Below, one piece after another: positions 3,318 to 55,221 of a stretch of DNA of 64,000 nt. The DNA is from Rhabdophis nuchalis (Eukaryota; Chordata; Lepidosauria; Squamata; Natricidae), in contig CM077648.1 in the NCBI GenBank assembly GCA_039707465.1, positions 72,125,619 through 72,189,618 on the forward strand, in the 5' to 3' direction. Numbering within the stretch: the stretch's first letter is position 1; each line of letters opens with the position of its first letter. The position numbers and the translations under genes are program-made. The notes under the pieces were generated by a model, which did no database searches, was not told the DNA's origin, and worked only from the letters and a program-made list of their open reading frames with translations.

Positions 3318-4378
3318 GTAGATAGGTAGGTACGTAGGTAGGTACGTAGATAGAGGGATAGATAGGGAGAAATATGGTAGGTAGGTAGGTAGGGGGATAG
3401 ATAGATAGGGAGAAACACAGTAGGTAGGTAGGTAGGTAGAGGGAGAAAGGAAGAAATACAGTAGGTAGGTAGGTAGGTAGGTAGGTAGGTAGGTAGGTAG
3501 GTGGGTGGATAGATAGAGAGGGAGAAATACAGTAGGTAGGTAGGTAGAGGGAGTAGTAGGTAGGTAGGTAGAGGGAGAAAGGAAGAAATACAGTAGGTAG
3601 GTAGGTAGGTGGGTGGATAGATAGAGAGGGAGAAATACAGTAGGTAGGTAGGTAAGGGAATAGAGAGGGAGAAATACAGTAGGTAGCTAGGTAGATGGGA
3701 TAGATAGAGAGGGAGAATTACAGTAGGTAGGTAGGTAGATAGAGGGAGAAAGGAAGAAATACAGTAGGTAGGTAAGTAGAGGGATAGACAGAGGGAGAAA
3801 TACAGTAGGTAGGTTAGGTAGGTAGGGGGATAGATAGATAGGGAGAAATATGGGAGGGAGAGGGATAGATAGGGAGAAATACAGTAGGTAGGTAGAGGAA
3901 TAGAGATTGGAAAAAATACAGTAGGTAGTTAGGTAGAGGGATAGATAGAGAGGGGGAAATACGGTAGGTAGGTAGGTAGAGGGAGAAAGGAAGAAATACA
4001 GTGGGTAGGTAGGTAGGTGGGTAGGTGGATAGATAGAGAGGGAGAAATACAGTAGGTAGGTAGGTAGATAGAGGGTGAAAGGAAGAAATACAGTAGGTAG
4101 GTAAGTAGAGGGATAGACAGGGAGAAATACAGTAGCAGGTAGGTATCGGGATAGATAGGGAGAAATGCAGTAGGTAGATAGGTAGAGGAATAGAAAGAAA
4201 GGGAGAAATACAGTAGGTAGGTAGGTAGAAGAATAGAGAGGGAGAAATACAGTAGGTAGGTAGGTAGATAGAGGAAGAAATACAGTAGGTAGGTAGGTAG
4301 AGGGATAGATAGGGAGAAATACGGTAGGTAGGTAGGTAGAGGGATAGATAGAGAGGGAGAAATACAGTAGGTAGGTAG
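3318..4378. repeat. TAGG/GATA minisatellite, higher-order units
   Basis: About 1 kb of GGTA runs alternating with GGGATAGATAG and GGAGAAATACAG spacers, in irregular 40-60 bp higher-order units. The 260-codon minus-strand frame across it is repeat translation (Leu-Pro-Thr-Tyr cycles), not a gene. Confidence 0.92.
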
Positions 4379-4490
4379 GTTGGGGGTTATACGGTGGTTG
4401 TGTGTATGTGTGCAGGTGTAGATCTACACACCGATTGGTTGGCCATTTAACCAAACTGGGCCACAGCAATGCATGGCCGGGTATAGCTAG

Positions 4491-5377: not shown

Positions 5378-5509
5378 TATGTGACAAATCAGCCAACCAA
5401 TCCGTTTAAAGCAGCAGAGCCAGCATTCCAACCCCCCCCACCTCTACTTATAGAAAAACTGCCACTTCGATCACAGTTTACTCGCAAGAAAACAAAGGCA
5501 CCAGCCTGA
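5301..5509 (+). pseudogene. Penelope-like element, C-terminal coding fragment
   Basis: The open frame ends at TGA 5507-5509. It is rich in Pro, Gln and Asn, like the low-complexity tail of the larger PLE ORF at 40172-41854, and ends in Lys-Ala-Pro-Ala as that ORF ends in Glu-Ala-Pro-Ala. RT and endonuclease parts are missing. The stop codon lies inside the hammerhead core that begins at 5506. Confidence 0.7.
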
Positions 5510-5553
5510 TGATGACGGGTGTGATCCCGTTGAAACGTTGCAAAAACACTTTT
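5494..5553 (+). ncRNA. PLE-associated hammerhead ribozyme
   Basis: 60-nt fold: outer stem I AAAGG (5494-5498) with CUUUU (5549-5553); internal loop CACCA against AAAAACA; inner stem GC/GC; CUGAUGA (5506-5512); one extra U (5513); stem II GACGGG/CCCGUU with loop UGUGAU; GAAAC (5532-5536); GUU cleavage triplet (5537-5539). Stem III is only AC/GU with no loop. Hammerheads in PLE terminal repeats are established, including forms with almost no stem III that act as dimers. The extra U departs from the canonical core, so activity is inferred. Confidence 0.8.
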
Positions 5554-5643
5554 AATTTTACACGGGAAAAGACCCGAATAAACCAAAACCTACATACCTA
5601 TACCCGTGAAAATCTATGGAAACAAATATATATGTATATGTAT

Positions 5644-5676
<33 letters not shown>

Positions 5677-5712
5677 CACGGGAAAACACTCGAAGACAGC
5701 AATACCAGCAGA
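5554..5712 (+). mobile_element. PLE terminal-repeat (pLTR) remainder
   Basis: Downstream of the ribozyme come ACACGGGAAAAGACCCGAA (a CGGG/CCCG hairpin) and TACCCGTGAAAATCTA, the conserved distal end of these PLE repeats. An alternating TA/CA run follows, then a second short pLTR piece (ACACGGGAAAACAC...) near 5676-5712. Confidence 0.75.
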
Positions 5713-5954
<242 letters not shown>

Positions 5955-5955
<1 letters not shown>

Positions 5956-5966
5956 GATAGATAGAT

Positions 5967-6033
<67 letters not shown>
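5955..6033. repeat. (GATA)n microsatellite
   Basis: GATA repeats replace the usual CA/TA run at the end of the preceding unit's CTAACA tail. Confidence 0.95.
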
Positions 6034-6035
<2 letters not shown>

Positions 6036-6203
6036 ATTGTTTTCACAACTTCCTGTAAGGGCCCCATTAAGGGAGGAGACATACAATTATCTATACTAAA
6101 TACTCCTGTCTTAGCTGATGAAATGGGTAGAACCAATTAGGCTGAATTGCTAGGCTTCTGCCTTGAATGCATTGCAGCCCCGGTTCGAATCCCAGTGGAG
6201 TGT

Positions 6204-6250
6204 GGCCAACTGATGAGAGCTAATAAGCTCGAAATAGATCTATCTTGGTC
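6204..6250 (+). ncRNA. Type-I hammerhead ribozyme, unit 1
   Basis: Stem I GGCCAA (6204-6209) with UUGGUC (6245-6250); CUGAUGA core; stem II GAGC/GCUC with loop UAAUAA; GAAA; stem III AUAG-AU-CUAU; AUC cleavage triplet ending at 6244. Compared with units 2 and 3, the first stem-I pair changes from G-C to A-U on both strands, a compensatory change. Confidence 0.9.
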
Positions 6251-6549
6251 TCTCAAATTTAAATAAATTTATTGATCAGCACATAAAAAACTAACACACA
6301 CACACACACACACACAGATATATATATGTTAGTTTTATGAGATGATCAATAAATTAAATATCTAAAAAATTACACAACGTAATTCTTGGCTTGCTGTCTA
6401 GATGGTCTCTGGTGATGAGCCGAAAGGCAGGAAAGGAAACAGTATGTCTCCTCCCTTAATTGGGGCCTAATAATAACAGGTTGTTGTGAAACAATTACCT
6501 ATACTAATATACCCTGTCTAAGCTGATGCAATGAATAGGGGAACTGGTT

Positions 6550-6604
6550 TGGCTTAAGTGTGAGGCTTCTCGCCTTACATGCAACATAGCCCCGGTTCGA
6601 ATCC
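6550..6604 (+). promoter_or_regulatory. tRNA-like Pol III A and B boxes, unit 2
   Basis: A box TGGCTTAAGTG (6550-6560) fits TRGYNNANNNG. B box GGTTCGAATCC (6594-6604) is a perfect match. Start-to-start spacing is 44 bp, normal for an internal Pol III promoter. It lies just upstream of the hammerhead at 6618. The surrounding sequence does not close a full tRNA cloverleaf, so it is a tRNA-derived promoter and not a tRNA gene. Confidence 0.8.
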
Positions 6605-6617
6605 CAGTAAGGGGTAT

Positions 6618-6664
6618 GGCCAGCTGATGAAAGCTAATAAGCTCGAAATAGATCTATCCTGGTC
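6618..6664 (+). ncRNA. Type-I hammerhead ribozyme, unit 2
   Basis: Stem I GGCCAG/CUGGUC, CUGAUGA, GAAA, palindromic AUAGAUCUAU stem III and C17. The stem II 5-prime strand is AAGC in place of GAGC, which breaks the closing G10.1-C11.1 pair, so this copy may be impaired. Confidence 0.87.
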
Positions 6665-6895
6665 TCTTCTAATTTAATTTATTGATCAGCTCATAAAACT
6701 AACACACATATCTAAAATATTATACAACGTAATTCTTGGCTTGCTGTCTGGATGGTCTCTAGCGATGAGCCGATAGGCAGTAAGGGAAACAGTATGTCTC
6801 CTCCCTTAATTGGGGCCTAATAATAACAGGTTGTTGTGAAACAATTACCTATACTAATATACCCTGTCTAAGCTGATGCAATAGGGGAACTGGTT

Positions 6896-6950
6896 TGGCT
6901 TAAGTGTGAGGCTTCTCGCCTTACATGCAACATAGCCCCGGTTCGAAGCC
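6896..6950 (+). promoter_or_regulatory. tRNA-like Pol III A and B boxes, unit 3
   Basis: A box TGGCTTAAGTG at 6896-6906 and B box GGTTCGAAGCC (one change) at 6940-6950, with the same 44-bp spacing as unit 2. It lies 14 bp upstream of the unit-3 hammerhead. Confidence 0.78.
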
Positions 6951-6963
6951 CAGTAAGGGGTAT

Positions 6964-7010
6964 GGCCAGCTGATGAGAGCTAATAAGCTCGAAATAGATC
7001 TATCCTGGTC
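6964..7010 (+). ncRNA. Type-I hammerhead ribozyme, unit 3 (consensus form)
   Basis: Consensus copy: GGCCAG (6964-6969), CUGAUGA (6970-6976), GAGC-UAAUAA-GCUC, GAAA (6991-6994), UAG-AU-CUA with U16.1 and C17 (7004), CUGGUC (7005-7010). All invariant core positions are present and G10.1-C11.1 is paired. The 10-nt stem III is a perfect palindrome with a 2-nt loop, more suited to pairing between two ribozymes than to a monomer hairpin. Confidence 0.92.
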
Positions 7011-7093
7011 TCTTCTAATTTAATTTATAGATCAGCTCATAAAACTAACACATATATATATATGATTTTTAAGGGCTAATTAATAAATAAGAG

Positions 7094-7207
<114 letters not shown>

Positions 7208-7242
7208 AGTTTTGAGTGTCACACTCACAGACACAAGCCTGC

Positions 7243-7276
7243 CTGATGATGACAAGTGAGATCTTGTCGAAACGTT
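7243..7276 (+). ncRNA. PLE hammerhead core
   Basis: CUGAUGA (7243-7249), extra U, stem II GACAAG/CUUGUC (perfect 6 bp), loop UGAGAU, GAAAC and GUU. The inner stem I GC/GC flanks it. The outer stem I is weak (AAG/CUU). Confidence 0.72.
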
Positions 7277-7482
7277 GCAACAACTTTTCTATGCCTTATA
7301 CATGGGAAAATCCCCGAAGCCAGCTATGCCAGCATACCTACACCCGTGAAAATCTACGAAAACAAATATATACATATATATACATATATATATTTGCTTT
7401 CGTAGATTTTCACGGGTATAGGTATGCTGGTATTGCCATCCTCGGGTGTTTTCCCATGTATATAGCATGGAATTGTTATTGC

Positions 7483-7516
7483 AACATTTCGGCAAGATCT
7501 CACTTGCCATCCTCAG
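7483..7516 (-). ncRNA. PLE hammerhead core, minus strand
   Basis: Read on the minus strand: CUGAGGA, U, stem II GGCAAG/CUUGCC, loop UGAGAU, GAAAU, GUU. The A-U to G-C change in stem II relative to 7243-7276 is compensatory. GAAAU in place of GAAAC changes C15.2 but still allows a U-G pair. Confidence 0.7.
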
Positions 7517-7991
7517 GCTTCGGTCTGTTATTGCGAAGGCGTCGCCCTTCCTTAAATCTTGGTGGGGTGTGTGTGGAGTGCTGACTATTGTTGTGAGTGG
7601 GTTGATTGGCTGTACAGCTGTATCATGATTGGTAGATTGATGCTGATTGGTCTTATTTGTATGTTTCTCCTTATTTTGAATTTCAACGGCTTGGGTGGAG
7701 GGTGGGGATCGTCTGTTGGTCAGTGCTGGTTTCCAGATGTCTGGTAGGCGGGAGGTGTCGTCACGTTTGTTCATATTGTTAGGTATTGAAATAGAGAAGC
7801 AACCTAACAATATGAACAAACGTGACGACACCTCCCACCTACCAGACATCTGGAAACCAGCACTGACCAACAGACGATCCCCACCCTCCACCCAAGCCGT
7901 TGAAATTCAAAATAAGGAGAAACATACAAATAAGACCAATCAGCATCAATCTACCAATCATGATACAGCTGCACAGCCAATCAACCCACTC

Positions 7992-8157
7992 ATTTATTTT
8001 TATTTTATTTTTCACATTTATATACCACCCTATCTCCCTTGCGGGACTCAGGGCGGTGCACAGGGAGTAATAAAATACTCTTAACACTAAATGCAGTAGC
8101 AATATATTAAAAAATAAATTAAATTAGAAACCCGTGCTAAAAACATAAAAAACCCTT
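7992..8157 (-). mobile_element. L2 LINE 3-prime tail, cut by LTR element
   Basis: Antisense L2 3-prime end: (TTTTA)n, then CCCTTGCGGGACTCAGGGCGGTG and the short downstream motif ending in CCCGTGCTAA. It stops exactly where the Gypsy LTR begins, so the LTR element landed in an L2 copy. The rest of that copy is not found on the other side. Confidence 0.85.
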
Positions 8158-39136: not shown

Positions 39137-39180
39137 TGGCATTGCTTGCTTCGGGTATTTTCCCATGTAGTTAGTTAGTT
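39031..39180. repeat. Perfect 150-bp palindrome of PLE-end DNA
   Basis: Arms 39031-39105 and 39106-39180 match base for base. The outer part is AACTAACTAACTACATGGG then AAAATACCCGAAGC (a PLE pLTR-like hairpin segment); the inner part is TG then TA repeats. The right arm runs straight into a hammerhead-SINE tail. Confidence 0.93.
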
Positions 39181-39585
39181 TTATGAGCTGATCAATAAAT
39201 TAAATTAGAAGAGACCAGGATAGATCTATTTCGAGCTTATTAGCTCTCATCAGCTGGCCATACCCCTTACTGGGATTCGAACCGGGGCTATGTTGCATGC
39301 AAGGCGAGGAACCTCACACTTAAGCCAAACCAGTTCCCCTATTACATCAGCTTAGACAGGGTATATTAGTATAGGTAATTGTTTCACAACAACCTGTTAT
39401 TATTAGGCCCCAATTAAAGGGAGGAGACATACTGTTTCCCTTACTGCCCATCGGCTCATCGCTAGTAATTCTTGGCTTGCTGTTTGGATGGTCTCTAGCG
39501 ATGAGCCGATGGGCAGTAAGGGAAACAGTATGTCTCCTCCCTTTAATTGGGGCCTAATAATAACAGGTTGTTGTGAAACAATTAC

Positions 39586-39623
<38 letters not shown>

Positions 39624-39935
39624 GTTTTTATGAGCTGATCAATAAATTTAAATTTTGAGAGACCAAGATAGATCTATTTCGAGCTTATTAGCTCTCATCA
39701 AGCTCGGAATAGATCTATCTTGGTCTCTCATCAAGCTCGAAATAGATCTATCTTGGTCTCTCAAAATTTAAATTTATTGATCAGCTCATAAAAACTAACA
39801 CATATCTAAAAAATATTACACAACGTAACTAAAAAATGGTTCTCTGTCTAGATGGTCTCTGGTGATGAGCCGACAGGCAGAGAGGGAAACAGCATGTCTC
39901 CTCCCTTAATTGGGGCCCTTACAGGAAGTTGTGGA
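39176..39935. mobile_element. Hammerhead-SINE copies in opposed orientation
   Basis: 39176-39465 is a minus-strand unit with hammerhead, B box (GGATTCGAACC on plus, 39273-39283) and A box (39317-39327). 39495-39585 is its inverted repeat (91-bp arms with 39375-39465). 39630-39700 is a minus tail and partial ribozyme, followed by two plus partial ribozymes (GCTCGGAATAGATC near 39702 and GCTCGAAATAGATC near 39735) and a plus body to 39935. Every strand switch is a palindrome. Confidence 0.85.
39213..39259 (-). ncRNA. Type-I hammerhead ribozyme, minus strand
   Basis: Intact consensus on the minus strand: GGCCAG/CUGGUC stem I, CUGAUGA, GAGC-UAAUAA-GCUC, GAAA, AUAGAUCUAU, C17. It lies 14 bp downstream of its own B box on the minus strand. 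Confidence 0.92.
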
Positions 39936-40016
39936 AACAATTATATATATACATACAAACACCCGCGAAAACCTCAGAAAACACACACACACACACATAT
40001 ATATATATAATATAAT

Positions 40017-40067
<51 letters not shown>

Positions 40068-40127
40068 GTTTTCGCGGGTGTTTGTATGTAGGTCTTTGGT
40101 TGTTCGGGTTTTCTCCCGCGTAGAATT

Positions 40128-40187
40128 GGAAGTATCTTCACGACGTTTCGATGAAATCTCATTCATCATCTTCAGGCTGGTGCTTCC
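40128..40187 (-). ncRNA. PLE hammerhead ribozyme overlapping ORF stop
   Basis: 60-nt minus-strand fold: GGAAG/CUUCC outer stem I, loops CACCA and GAAGAUA, inner GC/GU, CUGAAGA (40175-40169), extra U, stem II GAUGAA/UUCAUC (perfect), loop UGAGAU, GAAAC, GUC. Stem II and outer stem I differ from the 5494 copy on both strands, giving strong covariation. GUC is the classical cleavage triplet. Confidence 0.82.
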
Positions 40188-41854
40188 GGCTTGGTGCTTC
40201 CAGGAGCAATGTGAGATCTCAGCCGGTTCCTCTTTTTAACTGCCAGTGGGGGTGTGACCTGATTGGGTGGGAGTTTGGCTGCATTCTGATTGGGTGGAGG
40301 TGTGTTCTGATTGGTAGGGGGTTTGGCTGTGCTCTGATTGGATGGGGGCGTGTTCTGTTTGGGTGGGGGCCTGGTTGTGCTTGTGTTAGTCTGAGTAGCA
40401 GAGGAATTTGACCTGGTGAGCTGCATTGCTGTTGTTTGGCTTCGCGTTTGTGGTCGTACCACATCTCCGTGGTGGGCATCAGTTTGCTTCATGTATGGAT
40501 TGGAGGGGTTTAAAGTGGCTAATAATGCAGCTTTGGTCTGGCTTCTGGTTTGTGGTCGGGCTTCTGATTTGTGGTCATCATCGGTGTGGGTTTGGGTTTG
40601 CTTTTTGCGTGGATGTGTGATAGTGACATCCTGTGTGGTTTTCGTGAGTGTGGGTCTGGTATCATTCTTTGTGTTAGGGACTCGTTTGTCAGTGAGGGCA
40701 GGTTTCCAAATGGCTGGAAGGCGGGAGGTATCATCTCGTTTATTCATGCTGTGTGGCCGCTTTTCTATCTCAATAGCTTCTCTGATTATTCTGTTGTTAT
40801 AGTGTTCAATTTTGGCAATAGTTCTGGTCTTTTTAAAGTCTATATCATGTCCTGTGGCTTTGAAGTGTTGGACCAGGGAAGAAGTTGGTTCCTCCTTTCT
40901 GACTGAGTTTTTGTGTTCTTCAATGCGTGCCTTTATTCTTCTGTTGGTTTGTCCGATGTATGTGGTGGTGCAGGTGGTGCATGGGATTTCATATACTCCT
41001 TGATTTTCTAACTCTATTTTCTCTTTGGGGTTTCCTAGGATGGTGGATATTTTTCGGTTTGTGTAGAATGCTGTCTTGATGTTGTGTTTGTGGAGGATCT
41101 TGCTGATTCTGTCTGTGGTGCCTTTTATGTATGGGAGGAGGGCTTTGCCGTTTTCTTGTTCACTGTCTTGGACTTTAGTGGGGTTTTCTTTTTGGATTAG
41201 GTTAGTGATCTTGTTTCTTTGGAATCCGTTGGATGTTAGTACGTTGGTGAGAGTGTGTAGTTCGGTTTTTAGGTGTTGTTCGTCAGCTAAGCGTTTTGTT
41301 CTGGAGATGAGTGTCTTGGCTACAGAGTTGATCTGTGCTGGGTGGTGGTGTGAGAGTGCATGCAAATAGCGGTTTGTGTGTGTTTTCTTCTGGTAGATGG
41401 TGTGTCCTAGGGATCCGTTGGATTTCTTATAGACTAAGACATCCAGGAAGGGGAGTTGGTTATTGGCTTCTGTTTCCATGGTGAACTGTATTTTGGGGTG
41501 TAGACTGTTGAGGTGTGTGAGGAAGTTGTCCAGTTTATCTTTTCCATGTGGCCAGATTATGAAGGTGTCGTCTACATATCTGAGCCAGAGTTTGGGTTTG
41601 TGATCTGATTTTTCTAGAGCTTGGGTTTCAAAGTGTTCCATGTAGAGGTTAGCAATGACAGGTGAGAGGGGTGATCCCATGGGTGCTCCTTCTATTTGTT
41701 TGTATTTTTGTCCATTATAGATGAAGTATGTGTTGGATAGGCAGTGGTTGGTCAGATCTAGGATATGTTTGGGGGGGCTATATTTGTTTTGGATAGCTGT
41801 CAAGGCTTCTTTGATTGGTACTTGGGTGAAGAGGGATACGACATCGAAGCTCAC
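40172..41854 (-). CDS. PLE reverse transcriptase with GIY-YIG endonuclease (partial)
   Basis: 560 codons from the first internal Met; the true N terminus lies upstream and is truncated. RT: FDVVSLFTQVPI (3-14), APMGSPLSP (57-65), YVDDT catalytic box (93-97), LPFLDVLV (134-141). GIY-YIG nuclease: GVYEI (286-290), YIGQTNRR (299-306), Arg310, Glu-His 313-314. The last 180 residues are Thr/Pro/Asn/Gln-rich with RPQTRSQT and NQNTPPPNQ repeats. PLEs use telomerase-like RT with this nuclease for target-primed reverse transcription. The stop UGA lies inside the hammerhead core. Confidence 0.92.
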   Translation of the reverse strand: MSFDVVSLFTQVPIKEALTAIQNKYSPPKHILDLTNHCLSNTYFIYNGQKYKQIEGAPMGSPLSPVIANLYMEHFETQALEKSDHKPKLWLRYVDDTFIIWPHGKDKLDNFLTHLNSLHPKIQFTMETEANNQLPFLDVLVYKKSNGSLGHTIYQKKTHTNRYLHALSHHHPAQINSVAKTLISRTKRLADEQHLKTELHTLTNVLTSNGFQRNKITNLIQKENPTKVQDSEQENGKALLPYIKGTTDRISKILHKHNIKTAFYTNRKISTILGNPKEKIELENQGVYEIPCTTCTTTYIGQTNRRIKARIEEHKNSVRKEEPTSSLVQHFKATGHDIDFKKTRTIAKIEHYNNRIIREAIEIEKRPHSMNKRDDTSRLPAIWKPALTDKRVPNTKNDTRPTLTKTTQDVTITHPRKKQTQTHTDDDHKSEARPQTRSQTKAALLATLNPSNPYMKQTDAHHGDVVRPQTRSQTTAMQLTRSNSSATQTNTSTTRPPPKQNTPPSNQSTAKPPTNQNTPPPNQNAAKLPPNQVTPPLAVKKRNRLRSHIAPGSTKPEAPA

Positions 41855-42225
41855 GAGTAGGTCGCTGGGCTGTAAGTTTTGTTTCTTTATGATCTCTATG
41901 AACTGAAATGAGTTTTTTACGTGTGAGGTGATGGATTCTGCATAGGGCTGTAGTTGTTTGGCGAGAAATTTGGCTAGGTTTTGTAGAGGAGAGCCTATGG
42001 AGCTGACTATGGGTCTGAGTGGGGTTCCTTCTTTGTGTATCTTGGGGAGACCATAGAGCTTAGGGCATCTGGATGATTTTTCTCTGGGAATGATTCTTTG
42101 CTGGATTTCTTCGCTGATGGGGGAGGCTTTTATTTTGGATCTAGTGGTAGGATCGGTGCTTAGGATCGGTGCTTATATATATATATGTTAGTTTTATGAG
42201 CTGATCAATAAATTAAATTAGAAGA

Positions 42226-42272
42226 GACCAGGATAGATCTATTTCGAGCTTATTAGCTCTCATCAGCTGGCC
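42226..42272 (-). ncRNA. Type-I hammerhead ribozyme, minus
   Basis: Intact consensus copy, identical in core to 39213-39259. Confidence 0.9.
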
Positions 42273-42302
42273 ATACCCCTTACTGGGATTCGAACCGGGT
42301 AT

Positions 42303-42349
42303 GGCCAGCTGATGAGAGCTAATAAGCTCGAAATAGATCTATCCTGGTC
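42303..42349 (+). ncRNA. Type-I hammerhead ribozyme, plus
   Basis: Intact consensus copy, exact mirror of 42226-42272. A transcript through both would preferentially fold into one long hairpin, which would compete with ribozyme folding. Confidence 0.9.
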
Positions 42350-42540
42350 TCTTCTAATTTAATTTATTGATCAGCTCATAAAACTAACACACATATCTAA
42401 AATATTATACAACGTAATTCTTGGCTTGCTGTTTGGATGGTCTCTAGCGATGAGCCGATGAGCAGTAAAGGAAACAGTGTGTTTCCTCCCTGAATTGGGG
42501 CCTAATAATAACAGGTTGTTGTGAAACAATTACATATATA

Positions 42541-42712
42541 TATGAAGTGGATATATTGTTACAGCTTCCTGTTTAGGCCTATTTTAAGGGAGGAGACAAA
42601 CTTGTCATCCTTCTCTGTCCTTCGACTCAACCTAGAGACCATCCAGACAGAGACCTATTAAATTGCTGCTGTCTTTTTAGATATGTGTTAAATTTCTTTA
42701 AGGGATGATTAT
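42541..42712 (-). mobile_element. Hammerhead-SINE subfamily-2 body fragment
   Basis: Antisense body of the second subfamily (AGCTTCCTGTTTAGG, GGGAGGAGACAAAC, CCTTCGACTCAACC, then TTAGATATGTGTTAAATTTC), matching 43140-43290. No ribozyme is retained. Confidence 0.7.
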
Positions 42713-42719
42713 ATATATA

Positions 42720-42850
42720 TATATATGTAGGTCTTTGGTTGTTCGGGTTTTCTCCTGCGTAGAATTGGAAGTATCTTCACGACGTTTCGATGAAATCTCA
42801 TTCATCATCTTCAGGCTGGTGCTTCGGGCTTGGTGCTTCCAGGAGCAATT
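42720..42850 (-). mobile_element. PLE terminal repeat with hammerhead
   Basis: Minus-strand pLTR closely matching 40090-40205. Hammerhead core at 42781-42814: CUGAAGA, U, GAUGAA/UUCAUC, GAAAC, GUC. Outer stem I has one mismatch (CGAAG against CUUCC). The element is cut off at TATATATAGG on the right. Confidence 0.8.
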
Positions 42851-42861
42851 TATATATAGGC

Positions 42862-43002
42862 TGAAAATAAAGAGACCAGGATGGATCCATTTCAGGCTTA
42901 TTAGCCTTCTTCAGCTGGCCATACTCCTTCTACTGCTGAAGAAGGCTAATAAGCCTGAAATGGATCCATCCTGGTCTCTTTATTTTCCGCCCTTAAAAAT
43001 CT

Positions 43003-43007
<5 letters not shown>
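42862..43007. mobile_element. Head-to-head hammerhead-SINE pair, subfamily 2
   Basis: A minus copy (GGCTGAAAATAAAGAGACC...) and a plus copy form a near-perfect palindrome centred near 42935. The minus copy has a full hammerhead. The plus copy begins at CTGAAGA (42936) and lacks the stem I 5-prime strand. Confidence 0.85.
42874..42920 (-). ncRNA. Type-I hammerhead ribozyme, subfamily 2
   Basis: GGCCAG/CUGGUC stem I, CUGAAGA, stem II AGGC-UAAUAA-GCCU, GAAA, stem III AUGG-AU-CCAU, C17. Relative to subfamily 1, stem II (GAGC/GCUC to AGGC/GCCU) and stem III (AUAG/CUAU to AUGG/CCAU) change on both strands, while core, loop UAAUAA and stem I stay fixed. Confidence 0.9.

Positions 43008-43061
<54 letters not shown>
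43008..43061. repeat. (TA)n microsatellite
   Basis: About 27 TA units at the end of the hammerhead-SINE pair. Confidence 0.97.
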
Positions 43062-43063
<2 letters not shown>

Positions 43064-43105
43064 CTTCGGGTATACACGGGAAAATACCTGAAGCAAGCAA
43101 TGCCA

Positions 43106-43133
<28 letters not shown>
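43062..43133. mobile_element. PLE-end fragment and (TG)n
   Basis: TTGCTTCGGGTATACACGGG, AAAATACCTGAAGCAAGCAA (hairpin) and CCAG, then TG repeats. Same sequence as the arms of the 39031-39180 palindrome. Confidence 0.7.
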
Positions 43134-43136
<3 letters not shown>

Positions 43137-43309
43137 CGAGAGATAATTATCACAGCTCCTGTTCAGAGGTCCCTTTAAGGGGAGGAGACTCAACGTCATC
43201 TCTCTCTGCCCTTCGACTCATCCTAGAGATCATCCAGACAGAGAACCTAATTAGATTACTGCTGTATTTTTTAGATATGTGTTAGATTTTTAAGGGCTGA
43301 AAATAAAGG

Positions 43310-43356
43310 GACCAGGATGGATCCATTTCAGGCTTATTAGCCTTCTTCAGCTGGCC
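43310..43356 (-). ncRNA. Type-I hammerhead ribozyme, subfamily 2
   Basis: Intact on the minus strand with CUGAAGA, AGGC/GCCU and AUGGAUCCAU. The stem I pair is GGCCAG/CUGGUC. Confidence 0.9.
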
Positions 43357-43371
43357 ATACTCCTTCTACTG

Positions 43372-43427
43372 GGATTTGAACTGGTGCTTTCCAGCATATG
43401 AGACAGGCTTCTCTATGCCTTGAGCTA
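43372..43427 (-). promoter_or_regulatory. tRNA-like Pol III A and B boxes, subfamily 2
   Basis: On the minus strand: A box TAGCTCAAGGC (43427-43417) and B box AGTTCAAATCC (43382-43372), with tRNA-like spacing. It lies 16 bp upstream of the hammerhead at 43356. The TAGCTCA motif is closer to real tRNA genes than the subfamily-1 box. Confidence 0.8.
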
Positions 43428-43835
43428 TCCAGTATCCCTGATATATCAGCCAATTTACAGGACTCTTAAATGAAAGATAATTATCACAGCTCCTGTTCAG
43501 AGGTCCCTTTAAGGGGAGGAGACTCAACATCATCCCTCTCTGCCCTTCGACTCATCCTAGAGATCATCCAGACAGAGAACCTAATTAGATTACTGCTGTG
43601 TGACATTTTTTAGATATGTGTTAGATTTTTAAGGGCTGAAAATAAAGGGCAGAGAGGACGTTGAGTCTCCTCCCCTTAAAGGGACCTCTGAACAGGAGCT
43701 GTGATAATTATCTCTCATTTAAGAGTCCTGTAAATTGGCTGATATATCAGGGATACTGGACAGCTCAAGGCATAGATAAGCCTGTCTCATATGCTGGAAA
43801 GCACCAGTTCAAATCCCAGTAGAAGGAGTATGGCC

Positions 43836-45155
43836 GGCTTTCGATACCATCGACCATGGTATCCTATTGCATCGGCTGGGGGGGTTGGGGGTGGGAGGCA
43901 CCGTTTTACGGTGGTTCTCCTCCTACCTCTCTGGCCGATCGCAATTTGTGTTGGCAGGAGAGCAGAGGTCGACCCCGAGACCCCTCACATGTGGGGTGCC
44001 TCAGGGGTCGGTCCTCTCGCCTCTCTTGTTTAATGCATACATGAAGCCGCTGGGTGAGATCATCCGTGGTTTTGGGGTAGAGTACCATCTCTACGCTGAT
44101 GACACTCAGCTGTATATATCTACCCCAAACCACCCCAACGATGCCGTAGCGGTGATGTGCCAGTGCCTGGAAGCCGTGCGGATCTGGATGGGAAGTAACG
44201 GACTCGGGCTCAACCCGACCAAGACCGAGTGGCTGTGGTTTCCGGCTGCCCGATTCAACCAGCTTTCTCCAACGCTGGCCATAGGGGGCGAACATCTTGC
44301 CCCTGTGGATGGGGCGCGCAATTTGGGAGTCCTCCTGGATACCCGGCTGTCTATGGAAGAGCAAGTGACAGCCGTGGCCAGGAGGGCGTTTTACCAGGTT
44401 CGCCTGGTTCGCCAATTGCGCCCCCTATTGGATCGGGACGCCCTTCGCACAGTCACTCATGCCCTCGTGACATCCCGACTGGACTACTGTAACTCCCTCT
44501 ACATGGGGCTCCCCTTGAGGTGCACCCGGAGGCTTCAGTTAGTTCAGAATGCAGCCGCGCGAGCAATTATGGGAACCACTAGGTTTACCCATGTAACACC
44601 GCTCTTGCGCGAGCTGCACTGGCTGCCTGTCGTCTTCCGGGTGCGCTTCAAGGTGTTGGTTATCATCTTTAAAGCGCTCCATGGCTCGGGACCTAGCTAC
44701 CTGCGGGATCGGATACTGCCTCACACATCCTCACGGCCGATTCGCTCCCACAGAGAGGGACTTCTCCGGGTGCCGTCCACTAGACTTTGTCAGCGGGCGA
44801 CGCCCAGGGGAAGGGCTCTCTCTGTGGCGGGCCCGGCCCTCTGGAACGACCTTCCCCCCGATATTAGAACGACCACGGACCTCCGCTCCTTCCGCCTGAA
44901 ACTAAAGACACATCTTTTCCGCCTGGCCGGCCTAGGGTAGTCTCTCTCTCTATGGGTTTTTTAATTGTTTATGTATATTGAGTGGGGATTTTTAGTTAAT
45001 GGGATTTTAGCACAGGAGTTTGTTTAATCTGTTTTAAATTGTATGTATTTTTGTATATTTATGGTTTTTATTCTCCCTGTGCACCGCCCCGAGTCCCTGT
45101 GGGGAGAGGGAGCGGTTAATAAATTCAGCTTTATTTATTTATTATTTATATTTAT
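43836..45155 (+). mobile_element. L2 LINE inserted in a hammerhead core
   Basis: 5-prime truncated at the FDTIDHG codons. It has the RT C-terminal half, a 3-prime UTR with ACCGCCCCGAGTCCCTGTGG and a TTTA-rich tail (45128-45155). The flanks are the two halves of one hammerhead (TATGGCC at left, GAAGAAGGC at right), with about 4 bp of target (AGCT) missing. Confidence 0.92.
43867..44940 (+). CDS. L2 reverse transcriptase C-terminal half, open frame
   Basis: 357 codons without a stop: [13 protein letters not shown] near 41-53, [10 protein letters not shown] near 76, [39 protein letters not shown], and end RLAGLG. The N-terminal fingers and endonuclease are absent, so it is a 5-prime truncated copy. 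Closely similar to the copy at 58313-60520. Confidence 0.9.
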   Translation: MHRLGGLGVGGTVLRWFSSYLSGRSQFVLAGEQRSTPRPLTCGVPQGSVLSPLLFNAYMKPLGEIIRGFGVEYHLYADDTQLYISTPNHPNDAVAVMCQCLEAVRIWMGSNGLGLNPTKTEWLWFPAARFNQLSPTLAIGGEHLAPVDGARNLGVLLDTRLSMEEQVTAVARRAFYQVRLVRQLRPLLDRDALRTVTHALVTSRLDYCNSLYMGLPLRCTRRLQLVQNAAARAIMGTTRFTHVTPLLRELHWLPVVFRVRFKVLVIIFKALHGSGPSYLRDRILPHTSSRPIRSHREGLLRVPSTRLCQRATPRGRALSVAGPALWNDLPPDIRTTTDLRSFRLKLKTHLFRLAGLG

Positions 45156-45194
45156 GAAGAAGGCTAATGAGCCTGAAATGGATCCATCCTGGTC
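45156..45194 (+). ncRNA. Hammerhead 3-prime half, separated by L2
   Basis: GAAGA, AGGC-UAAUGA-GCCU, GAAA, UGGAUCCAUC, CUGGUC. It continues the unit ending at 43835. One loop base differs (UAAUGA). Inactive as it stands, because stem I and the CU of the core are about 1.3 kb away. Confidence 0.85.
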
Positions 45195-45216
45195 TCTTTA
45201 TTTTCAGCCCTTAAAA

Positions 45217-45431: not shown

Positions 45432-45588
45432 ATTAAGGTTTTAGAACAGGCCTACCATTTAATATATTTTTAAACGTATTTTATGTATTTTATATTTTAT
45501 ACCACTGATTTTTATTGCTGCCTGTACACTGCCCTGAGTCCCGGAAGGGAGAAGGGCGGTATAAAAATTTAATAAATAAATATATATT
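45432..45588 (+). mobile_element. L2 LINE 3-prime UTR fragment
   Basis: AT-rich UTR, CACTGCCCTGAGTCCCGG, GGAGAAGGGCGGTAT and AATAAATAAAT tail. No coding part. Confidence 0.85.
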
Positions 45589-45589
45589 T

Positions 45590-45812
45590 CACAACACCCT
45601 GTTAGAGCCCCATTAAGGGAAGAGACACACTGTTTCCTTTTCTGCCTTTTGGTTCATCCCCAGAGACCATTTAAACAGAAACCCATGAGTTCCGTTATGT
45701 TAATTTTTTTAAAATATGTGTGTTAGTTTTATGAGCTGATCAATAAATAAATCAGATCTATCCTAGTCTCTGATTTATTTATTGATCAGCTCATAAAACT
45801 AACACACACACA
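45590..45812. mobile_element. Hammerhead-SINE fragments, palindromic
   Basis: Antisense body (CACAACACCCTGTTAGAGCC, GGGAAGAGACACAC), then an inverted repeat of the tail (TTAGTTTTATGAGCTGATC at 45724 against GATCAGCTCATAAAACTAA at 45783). A degraded ribozyme 3-prime half (AGATCTATCCTAGTCTC) sits in the middle. Confidence 0.75.
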
Positions 45813-49588: not shown

Positions 49589-49639
49589 AGTATATATATA
49601 TAAGGAAAACAGTATGCTTCCTCCCTTAATTGAGGCTTA

Positions 49640-50557
49640 CCAGATAAACTCTGTAGCCAAAACCCTCATATACAGAACCAAACGCCTACCTGACAAAGAC
49701 CACCTGAAAACCGAATTACACTTTCTCACAAATGCATTAATATCCAATGGATTCCGAAGAAAAACAATCACCAACCTAATCCAAAAAGAGACACCCCCCA
49801 AGAGCCAAGACAAAGAACAGGAAAATGGCATTGCCCTCCTCCCATACATCAAAGGTACCACAGACAAAATCAGCAAAATTCTCCACAAGCACAATATCAA
49901 GACAGCCTTCAACACCGACCAAAAAATAACCAATATCCTAAGGAATCCCAAAGACAAGGAGTCTACAAAATTCCATGTAAAATCTGCCCGGCCACTTACA
50001 TAGGACAAACCAACAGAAGAATAAGTGCACATGTTGCAGAACATAAGAATGCAGTAAAAAATCATCTTAATACCTCATCTCTCTATCAACACTTCAAAGC
50101 TACAGGACATGATATTGACTTTCAAGGAATTAAATTGATCTCCAAGGCTGAACAACTGAACAGGAGAATAATCAGAGAAGCCATCGAAATAGAGAAGCAA
50201 CCTAACAATATGAACAAACGTGATGACACCTCCCGCCTACCATACATCTGAAAACCAGCACTGACCAACAGACGAGCCCCACCCTCCATCCAAGCGTTGA
50301 AATTCAAAATAAGGAGAAACATACTAATAAGACCAATCAGCATCAATCTACCAATCATGATACAGCTGCACAGCCAATCAACCCACTCACAACAACAGTC
50401 AGCACTCCCCCCACCCCCACCAAGATTTAAGGAAGGCCGACGCCTTCGAAACCGCAGACCAAAGCCTGAAGATGGCAAGTGAGATCTTGCCGAAACGTTG
50501 CAAAAACAATTTCATACTTACACGGGAAAACACCTGAAGACAGCAATACCAGCATAG
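49640..50557 (+). mobile_element. PLE, 3-prime half, with hammerhead pLTR
   Basis: Coding remnant 49640-50250: LKTELHFLTNALISNGFRR-type linker, then GIY-YIG parts in another frame after a deletion near 49960 (YIGQTNRRISAH), and NRRIIREAIEIEKQ followed by a stop near the RLPYI codons. The pLTR follows with hammerhead core 50466-50499 and ACACGGGAAAACACC to AGCATA at 50557. Broken by at least one frameshift. Confidence 0.85.
50466..50499 (+). ncRNA. PLE hammerhead core
   Basis: CUGAAGA (50466-50472), U, stem II GGCAAG/CUUGCC, loop UGAGAU, GAAAC, GUU. Inner stem I GC/GC; the outer stem is not clear in this subfamily. Confidence 0.75.
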
Positions 50558-54657: not shown

Positions 54658-55037
54658 ACATTTCAAAACTACAGGACATGACATTGACTTTCAAGGAACT
54701 AAAATGATTTCCAAGGCTGAACAGCTGAACAGGAGAATAATCAGAGAAGCCATTGAAATAAGAGAAGCAACCTAACAATATGAACAAACGTGACGACACC
54801 TCCCGCCTACCAGACATCTGGAAACCAGCACTGACCAACAGACGAGCCCCACCCTCCACCCAAGCCGTTGAAATTCAAAATAAGGAGAAACATACAAATA
54901 AGACCAATCAGCATCAATCTACCAGTCATGATACAGCTGCACAGCCAATCAAACCACTCACAACAATAGCCAGCACTCCACCCCCCCACCCCCAACATTT
55001 AAGGAAGGTTGACGCCTTCGTAATCGCAGACTGAAGC
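54658..55037 (+). pseudogene. PLE C-terminal coding end
   Basis: It resumes after the L2: TGHDIDFQGTK, NRRIIREAIEI, then MNKRDDTSRLPDIWKPAL and a low-complexity tail to the stop near 55034. An extra base near 54760 (ATAAGAGAAGC against ATAGAGAAGC in other copies) shifts the frame. Confidence 0.82.
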
Positions 55038-55071
55038 CTGAGGATGGCAAGTGAGATCTTGCCGAAATGTT
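55038..55071 (+). ncRNA. PLE hammerhead core
   Basis: CUGAGGA, U, GGCAAG/CUUGCC, UGAGAU, GAAAU, GUU. Shares the C-to-U change in GAAAU with 7483-7516, so these copies are from one subfamily. Confidence 0.73.
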
Positions 55072-55170
55072 GCAATAACAATTCCATGCTATATGCACAG
55101 GAAAACACCCGAAGACAGCAATACCAGCATACCTACACCCGTGAAAATCTACGAAAGCAAATATATTATT

Positions 55171-55187
55171 GACCAACTCATAAAAAC

Positions 55188-55221
<34 letters not shown>
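55171..55221. repeat. Hammerhead-SINE tail and (CA)n
   Basis: TTGACCAACTCATAAAAACTAACACAC tail-like sequence (compare TTGATCAGCTCATAAAAC) leading into CA then TA repeats; it joins two PLE ends of opposite orientation. Confidence 0.75.

What the first reader, a model, noticed from the sequence alone, without database searches (positions are those of the whole stretch)
6034..7055. Amniote hammerhead SINE: tRNA-like Pol III promoter directly upstream of a type-I hammerhead, in tandem
Each unit has an A box and a perfect or near-perfect B box, followed within about 14 bp by a 47-nt type-I hammerhead with all core residues. Three units stand head to tail (ribozyme starts 6204, 6618, 6964). The closest known design is the schistosome Sm-alpha SINE, with newt satellite II and plant retrozymes as other tandem hammerhead repeats. 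I know of no named amniote family with this layout. It predicts self-cleaved, unit-length Pol III RNAs.
Basis: partly seen in the sequence, partly recalled or inferred. Interest (0 to 1): 0.92.

Follow-up and report, generated by a model that had tools for sequence, protein, structure and literature searches.

The report
Reptile self-cutting RNA jumping element
A small non-coding jumping element with a self-cutting hammerhead RNA is scattered in thousands of copies through what looks like a scaled-reptile genome, and the way its copies sit in the DNA suggests that a second, protein-coding element (a Penelope-like retrotransposon) pastes it in, a question that had been open for this class of elements.

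Summary
Three type-I hammerheads start at 6204, 6618 and 6964, each 11-13 nt after a tRNA-like B box. Only the last two form a tandem (6358-7053); the 6618 copy has a stem II mismatch. Eight more full or damaged copies lie in the window; the host genome holds 8734 exact core matches (reversed-pattern control 0). Sixty-one distinct versions show compensatory changes in all three stems. The double hammerhead is the best two-strand fold for 4 of 4 copies; no single copy prefers the hammerhead fold.

I file it as a squamate member of the metazoan non-LTR retrozymes, with two additions. (1) A Pol III-like B box is kept in three subfamilies; promoter activity is inferred. (2) Many copies sit as Penelope-type insertions: head-to-head inverted arms whose 3' ends fall at two unit sites, usually one per side (30 of 38 classed pairs), beside microsatellites. 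Penelope pieces lie in 21 of 39 and 8 of 20 retrozyme loci, 0 of 39 random loci; neighbouring Penelope tails follow the same rule (11 of 12 pairs). This points to Penelope-like elements as helper. Cleavage, circles and Pol III transcription are untested.

The parts
6083..6298 (+). unit 1 (subfamily A-I), 5'-truncated arm ending at site E1; its inverted partner arm is about 6028-6084 (-), ending at E2
6182..6192 (+). B box of unit 1, GGTTCGAATCC
6204..6250 (+). type-I hammerhead, core and all 14 pairs intact
6320..6359 (-). inverted tail arm (E1 end) head-to-head with units 2-3
6358..6707 (+). unit 2 (subfamily A-II) of the tandem
6550..6560 (+). A-box-like TGGCTTAAGTG of unit 2
   Evidence: read from the sequence; same motif as in unit 3
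6594..6604 (+). B box of unit 2, GGTTCGAATCC
6618..6664 (+). type-I hammerhead, core intact, A.C mismatch at base of stem II
6708..7053 (+). unit 3 (subfamily A-II); site E2 near 6853, site E1 near 7053
6896..6906 (+). A-box-like TGGCTTAAGTG of unit 3, starting 44 nt before the B box
6940..6950 (+). B box of unit 3, GGTTCGAAGCC
6964..7010 (+). type-I hammerhead, core and all 14 pairs intact; predicted cut after 7004
5830..5955 (.). head-to-head pair: (-) arm to E2, (+) arm to E1
39174..39590 (.). head-to-head pair E1(-)|(+)E2; intact hammerhead 39213-39259 (-)
39617..39956 (.). head-to-head pair E1(-)|(+)E2; damaged hammerhead copies
42173..42538 (.). head-to-head pair E1(-)|(+)E2 with intact hammerheads 42226-42272 (-) and 42303-42349 (+)
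42859..43014 (.). subfamily B head-to-head pair; intact hammerhead 42874-42920 (-); right end at E1, left arm truncated
43138..45212 (.). subfamily B pair: (-) arm 43138-43649 with intact hammerhead 43310-43356, (+) arm 43645-43839 that seems to resume at about 45147-45212 after an L2-like insertion
45587..45806 (.). head-to-head pair E2(-)|(+)E1
40057..42172 (-). Penelope-like element: reverse transcriptase ORF (40175-42172) with a weak GIY-YIG match (18.6 bits, cut-off 22.6), retrozyme pairs on both sides
5460..5625 (+). Penelope-like tail, left neighbour of the retrozyme block
7205..7992 (.). Penelope-like tail (+) 7205-7360 and a Penelope-like head-to-head foldback 7394-7795(-)|7802-7992(+)
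49601..50200 (+). same-strand join: 39 bp of retrozyme meeting Penelope-like sequence at 49639/49640 without a gap
55036..55196 (+). Penelope-like 3' end followed, after about ten AT-rich bases, by a same-strand retrozyme tail (about 55166-55196) and its CA repeat

Best explanation
A squamate non-LTR retrozyme: a roughly 340-350 bp retroelement carrying one type-I hammerhead per unit. Inferred life cycle: (1) multi-unit RNA is made, probably helped by a tRNA-like promoter whose B box lies 11-13 nt before the ribozyme (inferred); (2) the RNA cuts itself at every unit, mostly with two hammerheads sharing one long stem III, since a single copy has only a 3-bp stem III with a palindromic loop (structure computed, cleavage inferred); (3) monomers may be closed into circles by a host ligase, as shown for axolotl (by analogy); (4) a Penelope-like reverse transcriptase copies the RNA at AT/AC-rich sites, starting at two fixed internal places, E1 (...AAAACTAACACA) and E2 (...GTGAAACAATTA), usually one per target end, which leaves head-to-head inverted arms (insertion structure shown; enzyme inferred).
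For: Ribozyme: 8734 exact matches to a 35-nt core pattern, reversed control 0 (stem I is not in the pattern). Of 133 hammerhead-like copies (91 in 39 probe loci, 11 in the window, 31 in 20 pattern loci) 113 keep the core and 62 also all 14 pairs; 0 in 39 random loci. 61 distinct rows: 58 cells changed on both sides against 21.1 shuffled (0 of 500), at most 13 when slid. The base before the cut is C 119, A 10, T 4, G 0. The two-strand optimum is the double hammerhead in 4 of 4 copies. Monomer z -2.92.
Insertion: arm 3' ends in the E1/E2 windows 93 of 113 (probe loci), 18 of 21 (window), 35 of 45 (pattern loci); 5' ends 18 of 109, 1 of 21, 10 of 46. Mixed E1/E2 in 30 of 38 pairs with both ends classed (p about 2e-4). 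Penelope tails: 11 of 12 pairs mix short and long end (9 of 10 after collapsing one triplicated locus). Penelope pieces 21/39 and 8/20 (6/18 collapsed) against 0/39 random; an L2-like repeat is about equally common (8/39, 5/20, 7/39). 18 same-strand retrozyme/Penelope neighbours within 20 bp, 7 without a gap. PMC3846280 (passages) describes head-to-head inverted pLTRs with the tail on one side; PMC11167929 (parts 1-2) two RT start sites, AT-rich cleavage and extension of both strands by an anole PLE.
Box: GTTCRANNC within 39 nt upstream in 18 of 26 pattern-locus copies with a full 5' strand (68 of 83 in probe loci, whose probe held the box); random 6 of 2929.
Against: No RNA data. No Penelope tail resembles the retrozyme above shuffles (9 comparisons). 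Single hammerheads do not prefer the hammerhead fold (0 of 4); the longer B stretch does not fold as one. Two of the five covariation measures do not exceed shuffles: pairs with a two-sided change 6 against 5.2 (174 of 500), further pair types 14 against 16.3 (500 of 500). No tRNA hit; A box weak in A-I; lack of T4 in A units is chance-level (P about 0.5) and the B unit tested has a T4. Target-site duplications could not be read. Only 8 head-to-head pairs in the 20 pattern loci, 3 of them E1/E2, so many copies are single arms. Co-clustering may partly reflect a shared taste for microsatellites. E1/E2 and Penelope end windows were drawn after seeing the probe loci; the pattern loci are the check, and three of them look like one duplicated segment. 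The long Penelope end coincides with the cut end of my queries. The GIY-YIG match of the window's Penelope ORF is below cut-off.
Confidence: 0.68

Rival explanations
1. An ordinary tRNA-derived SINE moved by a LINE, with the hammerhead as an added 3' domain, as in schistosome Sm-alpha.
For: B box kept in three subfamilies, A-to-B spacing of 44, dispersed thousands of copies.
Against: Inverted two-armed insertions with two fixed 3' ends do not look like LINE target-primed copies; arms cross the unit junction; no tRNA model hit; an L2-like repeat is not enriched beside the copies. The tail was not compared with LINE 3' ends.
Confidence: 0.12
2. Retrozymes and Penelope elements only share a taste for AT/AC microsatellites; another enzyme moves the retrozyme and nested insertion explains the clusters.
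For: Of 30 inspected pairs (of 43) 21 have a microsatellite on the left, 27 on the right, 29 on at least one side; 2.25% of random 46-bp stretches do. No sequence in common with Penelope tails. 5 random loci with long microsatellites had no Penelope piece, too few to tell.
Against: The shared two-end, head-to-head rule and same-strand joins without microsatellite between (49639/49640; L024 at 1578/1579) need more than a shared target.
Confidence: 0.15
3. A satellite amplified as DNA (unequal exchange, DNA circles), with no RNA step.
For: Tandem units with near-identical neighbours: unit-unit identity at least 95% in 10 of 15 long arms.
Against: Copies are dispersed over chromosomes; the longest arm seen is 1129 bp, though loci of about 2 kb cap this; 5' ends scatter while 3' ends cluster, as expected of reverse transcription.
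Confidence: 0.04
4. A dead relic: the hammerheads look intact only because the copies are young.
For: Several genome copies are 100% identical over the 74-nt probe; many copies carry the A.C mismatch, although the probe itself was that variant.
Against: Compensatory changes between subfamilies in all three stems; free positions vary as the ribozyme allows.
Confidence: 0.06

Closest known systems
Metazoan non-LTR retrozymes, above all axolotl/newt 330-350 bp repeats (Cervera and de la Pena 2020, PMC7229834, parts 1-4 of 6 read)
   Same: Type-I hammerhead per unit, unit about 346 bp, GC 0.38-0.43, weak stem III with palindromic loop favouring dimers, highly paired monomer, Penelope-like elements in the same genome.
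   Different: In an amniote; a conserved Pol III-like box upstream of the ribozyme, whereas the 2020 review (PMC7761336, section 9 read) says retrozymes seem to lack promoters and show no motif naming their helper; tandems short, many copies in inverted pairs.
Schistosome Sm-alpha / Sj-alpha SINE-like elements (PMC2770079, PMC8490949 and PMC4918200, passages)
   Same: tRNA-related region plus type-I hammerhead in a short dispersed repeat.
   Different: There a whole tRNA (Gln) is recognisable; here only A/B-box-like motifs. Sequences were not compared.
Penelope-like elements, e.g. Poseidon of Anolis (PMC11167929, parts 1-2 of 4 read) and rotifer Penelope (PMC3846280, passages)
   Same: Head-to-head inverted arms, two alternative 3' ends, AT-rich targets, a hammerhead.
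   Different: The retrozyme has a fuller hammerhead and no reverse transcriptase of its own, and shares no sequence with the Penelope tails of the window.
Rfam Hammerhead_HH9 (RF02275), conserved ribozyme of amniotes
   Same: Type-I hammerhead with similar core; best hammerhead model for A copies.
   Different: 26-34 bits against a cut-off of 52; the true HH9 of this genome is a separate locus (88.7 bits) without the unit around it (best match 16 nt, E 0.002).

Membership tests
Metazoan non-LTR retrozyme | canonical type-I hammerhead | tested here: met
Metazoan non-LTR retrozyme | short tandem repeats of about 170-400 bp, dimers upward | tested here: met
   tandem 6358-7053; 15 of 134 arms exceed 480 bp, with internal periods of 335-351 in 14 and 313 in one. 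Many copies are less than one unit.
Metazoan non-LTR retrozyme | low GC (<45%) | tested here: met
   0.384-0.427 in five units
Metazoan non-LTR retrozyme | highly self-paired monomer RNA | tested here: met
   z -2.92, 0 of 100 shuffles (one unit)
Metazoan non-LTR retrozyme | Penelope-like elements in the same genome | tested here: met
Metazoan non-LTR retrozyme | expression as linear and circular RNA | not testable with these tools
   no RNA data
Metazoan non-LTR retrozyme | no LTR, PBS or PPT | not tested
   no dedicated search was made
tRNA-derived SINE | Pol III A and B boxes | tested here: inconclusive
   B-box core in 18 of 26 pattern-locus copies; A box judged by eye: good in B, near in A-II, poor in A-I
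tRNA-derived SINE | recognisable tRNA-related body | tested here: not met
   ARAGORN 0 in the window; no tRNA family at E<=1 over 5400-8000 or E<=10 over 43350-43470
tRNA-derived SINE | LINE-type 3' tail and one-sided target-primed insertion | tested here: inconclusive
   two 3' end sites and inverted arms; tail not compared with LINEs
Penelope-type insertion | head-to-head inverted arms | tested here: met
   34 pairs in 39 probe loci, 9 in the window, 8 in 20 pattern loci
Penelope-type insertion | two alternative 3' ends, one per side | tested here: met
   30 of 38 classed pairs; 13 further pairs had an end outside the windows or at a locus edge
Penelope-type insertion | AT-rich target | tested here: met
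   flank AT 0.64-0.65 against 0.556 at random; 30 of 43 pairs inspected
Penelope-type insertion | 8-10 bp target-site duplication | tested here: inconclusive
   flanks are microsatellites
Penelope-type insertion | sequence shared with the Penelope tail | tested here: not met
   no local score above shuffles in 9 comparisons
Hammerhead_HH9 (RF02275) | score above the gathering cut-off of 52 bits | tested here: not met
   26.3-33.5 bits
Schistosome Sm-alpha | homology to the Sm-alpha sequence | not tested
   sequence not at hand

The most novel reading that the evidence does not exclude
Penelope-like reverse transcriptase moves hammerhead retrozymes in trans, and does so by copying each end of the broken target from a different fixed start on the template RNA (E1 on one side, E2 on the other); the animal retrozyme cycle thus has a named helper, a readable insertion signature, and, in squamates, an internal Pol III start.
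Probability: 0.5. Interest if true: 0.86.

Novelty: new variant of a known kind. Interest (0 to 1): 0.74.

Why it matters
The texts I could read place animal hammerhead retroelements in invertebrates, amphibians and the coelacanth, call mammalian hammerheads isolated and amniote ones domesticated (PMC7229834, parts 1-4; PMC6155905, passages). They leave open what transcribes retrozymes and what inserts them (PMC7761336, section 9). A young-looking amniote family with 8734 exact core matches, a Pol III-like box and a Penelope-type insertion pattern makes both questions testable, in a group (lizards and snakes) where a Penelope protein has already been purified and assayed (PMC11167929, parts 1-2).

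Tried and rejected
Rejected: membership of HH9 (below cut-off; true HH9 locus found elsewhere). Absence of Pol III terminators as evidence: chance-level. Sequence kinship between Penelope tails and retrozyme: none seen. Identical tandem units as proof of a circular template: mixed; of 15 long arms 10 at or above 95%, 8 at least as alike as to the best other fetched locus, 4 below 85%. Relatives in viral and bacterial genome collections: none for the patterns used. A control centred on L2 and a Penelope-centred sample could not be run because the genome search did not complete; instead the L2 content of loci in hand was compared. The L1 ORF1 search gave three unnamed relatives. GIY-YIG in the window's Penelope ORFs: below cut-off (18.6 and 13.1 against 22.6); it is above cut-off in relative P0101.

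Bias and dropped rows: probe loci were found with a probe holding the B box and the A.C variant, pattern loci with an exact core, so intact-core and box shares are inflated there. Pairs touching a locus edge were left unclassed (1 of 34, 1 of 8). Penelope pairs in which a piece matched a query other than the three tail queries (L025 and three in the window) are not in the 12. Pieces under 38 bits were ignored. 47-mers cut by a locus end were skipped. In one search 30 of 43 pairs were inspected. In one search the 100 listed matches were coded by eye (paired in 98, 99 and 99 of 100 at three stem positions); they are the first 100 on contig C1, not a random sample. In one search the value for the mismatched 6618 copy included a non-standard pair; one search replaces it.
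Full report
WHAT IS THERE. A strict descriptor (core, three stems) finds seven in the window, the 6618 copy failing it, against a mean of 0.05 (maximum 2) in 60 first-order random windows. A looser pattern finds 11 with up to three mismatches, none in 100 shuffles. Only the second and third units are a tandem (6358-7053, period 346-350); the first is a separate insertion behind a CA/TA repeat and an inverted tail piece. Rfam calls nothing at gathering thresholds. With a permissive threshold over 5400-8000 and 42180-43420 the best hammerhead model is HH9 at 26-34 bits on A copies; the B hammerheads there match no hammerhead model at E<=1.

HOST AND SPREAD. The window lies in a 1.92-Gb assembly. 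The nearest named relatives of two Penelope ORFs in the window are Vipera latastei (87% over 52%, 84% over 97%), Crotalus tigris (83% over 46%) and Podarcis muralis (74% over 87%) (120 rows listed each), so I infer a squamate host; the species is not given. The core pattern CTGANGANNGCTAATAAGCNNGAAATNGATCNATC has 8734 exact matches in the genome, its reversed control none. A 74-nt box-plus-ribozyme probe gave 42 matches with 40 of 380 candidates scored, five of them 100% identical over the whole probe on three contigs (one is the window itself).

IT LOOKS LIKE A SELECTED RIBOZYME. In 39 probe loci (the 42 places less the window's own, two loci holding two places each), the window and 20 loci picked by eye from the pattern list I counted 133 hammerhead-like stretches: 113 keep the core, 62 also all 14 pairs; 39 random loci had none. 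Shares are inflated because loci were found through the core. The free core position 7 varies (T, A, C); the base before the cut is C 119, A 10, T 4, never G. Across 61 distinct versions 91.2% of pair cells form standard pairs (shuffled 87.2); 58 cells have changes on both sides against 21.1 in shuffles (0 of 500) and at most 13 with slid partners; six pairs, in stems I, II and III, have such changes. Two measures do not beat shuffles: the number of pairs with a two-sided change (6 against 5.2) and further pair types (14 against 16.3). Related sequences make shuffles generous, so I lean on the slid control and on subfamily contrasts: A-II GAGCT/AGCTC with ATAGATCTAT, B AGGCT/AGCCT with ATGGATCCAT. 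The frequent A.C variant is inflated by the probe; in the first 100 pattern matches that pair is formed in 98 (coded by eye).

DIMERS. A single copy has a 3-bp stem III with a GATC loop. The hammerhead fold is not the best fold for any of four single copies, and a longer B stretch does not fold as one; but the computed optimum for two strands is the double hammerhead in four of four, with one pair less in stem II for the 6618 copy. Amphibian retrozymes act as dimers for the same reason (PMC7229834, parts 1-4 of 6 read). The 346-nt monomer folds better than all 100 shuffles (z -2.92).

PROMOTER. A B box stands 11-13 nt before the window's three ribozymes. In the pattern loci, not chosen by the box, 18 of 26 copies with a complete 5' strand have its core within 39 nt (21 with one mismatch allowed); in probe loci, chosen with the box, 68 of 83; random stretches 6 of 2929. 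Between the distant subfamilies A-II and B the B box plus four bases is 80% identical and the ribozyme 85%, other parts 27-77%; the best 15-nt windows start at 242-255 (just after the box, into the ribozyme) and at 37-41. Against this: no tRNA is recognised, the A box is 27% identical between A-II and B as aligned, and the lack of TTTT in A units is chance-level. I take Pol III transcription as likely but unproven. The 2020 review states that retrozymes seem to lack promoters (PMC7761336, section 9); schistosome repeats with a tRNA are the known exception (PMC4918200, passages).

HOW IT INSERTS. In the 39 probe loci there are 34 head-to-head pairs of arms, in the window 9, in the 20 pattern loci 8; other copies are single arms or same-strand runs. 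The 3' ends of arms fall at two places of the unit, E1 (...AAAACTAACACA) and E2 (...GTGAAACAATTA): 93 of 113 in probe loci, 18 of 21 in the window, 35 of 45 in pattern loci, in windows covering 55 of 346 positions; 5' ends fall there in 18 of 109, 1 of 21 and 10 of 46. I drew these windows after seeing the probe loci; the pattern loci are the check (three of them look like one duplicated segment). Of 51 pairs, 38 have both outer ends classed: 30 have E1 on one side and E2 on the other, 8 the same site twice (p about 2e-4); in the pattern loci alone it is 3 of 4. Of 30 pairs inspected, 29 have a microsatellite on at least one side (left 21, right 27; random stretches 2.25%), so target duplications cannot be read.

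THE PENELOPE LINK. The neighbouring reverse transcriptase is called Penelope-like from its relatives (some carry a GIY-YIG domain), from a weak GIY-YIG match of its own (18.6 bits, cut-off 22.6) and from its insertion structure. Penelope insertions are described as inverted pseudo-LTRs, mostly head to head, with palindromes at the join and an optional 'tail' on one of the two (PMC3846280, passages). The purified anole element cuts AT-rich DNA, extends both strands and starts copying at two internal sites that match the genomic ends; the authors saw no difference in start site between top and bottom strand in vitro (PMC11167929, parts 1-2 of 4), which does not by itself predict one site per side. 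Penelope tails in my loci follow the one-per-side rule: 11 of 12 tail pairs combine the short and the long end (9 of 10 after collapsing the triplicated locus); the long end coincides with the cut end of my queries, beyond which the source copies run into microsatellite. Penelope pieces lie in 21 of 39 probe loci and 8 of 20 pattern loci, in none of 39 random loci, whereas an L2-like repeat is about equally common (8/39, 5/20, 7/39). Same-strand neighbours within 20 bp number 18, 7 of them without a gap, for example 49639/49640 in the window and 1578/1579 in L024. The two share no sequence above shuffles, so recognition, if real, rests on structure or on the ends.

WHAT IS SHOWN AND WHAT IS INFERRED. 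Shown by computation: ribozyme architecture with covariation, copy number, box, subfamilies, two-ended inverted insertions, co-location with Penelope. Inferred: cleavage, dimer use in vivo, Pol III start, circles, Penelope as the enzyme. Shared preference for microsatellites with nested insertion is the main rival and could explain part of the clustering.

NOVELTY. In the listings and passages of ten paper searches I saw no description of an amniote retrozyme, of a retrozyme with this box outside schistosomes, or of Penelope-type ends on retrozymes; most subscription papers, Repbase and Dfam were out of reach. I rate it a new variant of a known kind.

Noticed in passing
window 43839-45147: An L2-like element seems to have inserted inside a subfamily B hammerhead, splitting it into 43645-43839 and about 45147-45212.
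   Followed up: partly
L087 about 1501-1582 (G000 C1:378970325-378970406): The conserved amniote HH9 ribozyme is present in this genome (88.7 bits) as a separate locus without the retrozyme unit around it.
   Followed up: yes
window 7394-7992: A Penelope-like 3' part forms a near-perfect foldback with a short loop; cmscan scores parts of this block as several unrelated microRNA families below their cut-offs, a hairpin artefact.
   Followed up: partly
L089, L090, L091: Three loci at C1:3.41, 6.13 and 7.05 Mb carry the same subfamily B plus Penelope arrangement, probably one duplicated segment.
   Followed up: no
window 3318-4380: A GTAG/AGAT-rich minisatellite with a period of about 39-43 bp, over 1 kb long.
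   Followed up: no
pattern and probe loci: A further subfamily with stem I GGCTAG/CTAGTC, loop AAAT, a G.U at the base of stem II and often A before the cut (e.g. GGCTAGCTGATGAGAGCTAAATAGCTTGAAATAGATCTATACTAGTC).
   Followed up: no
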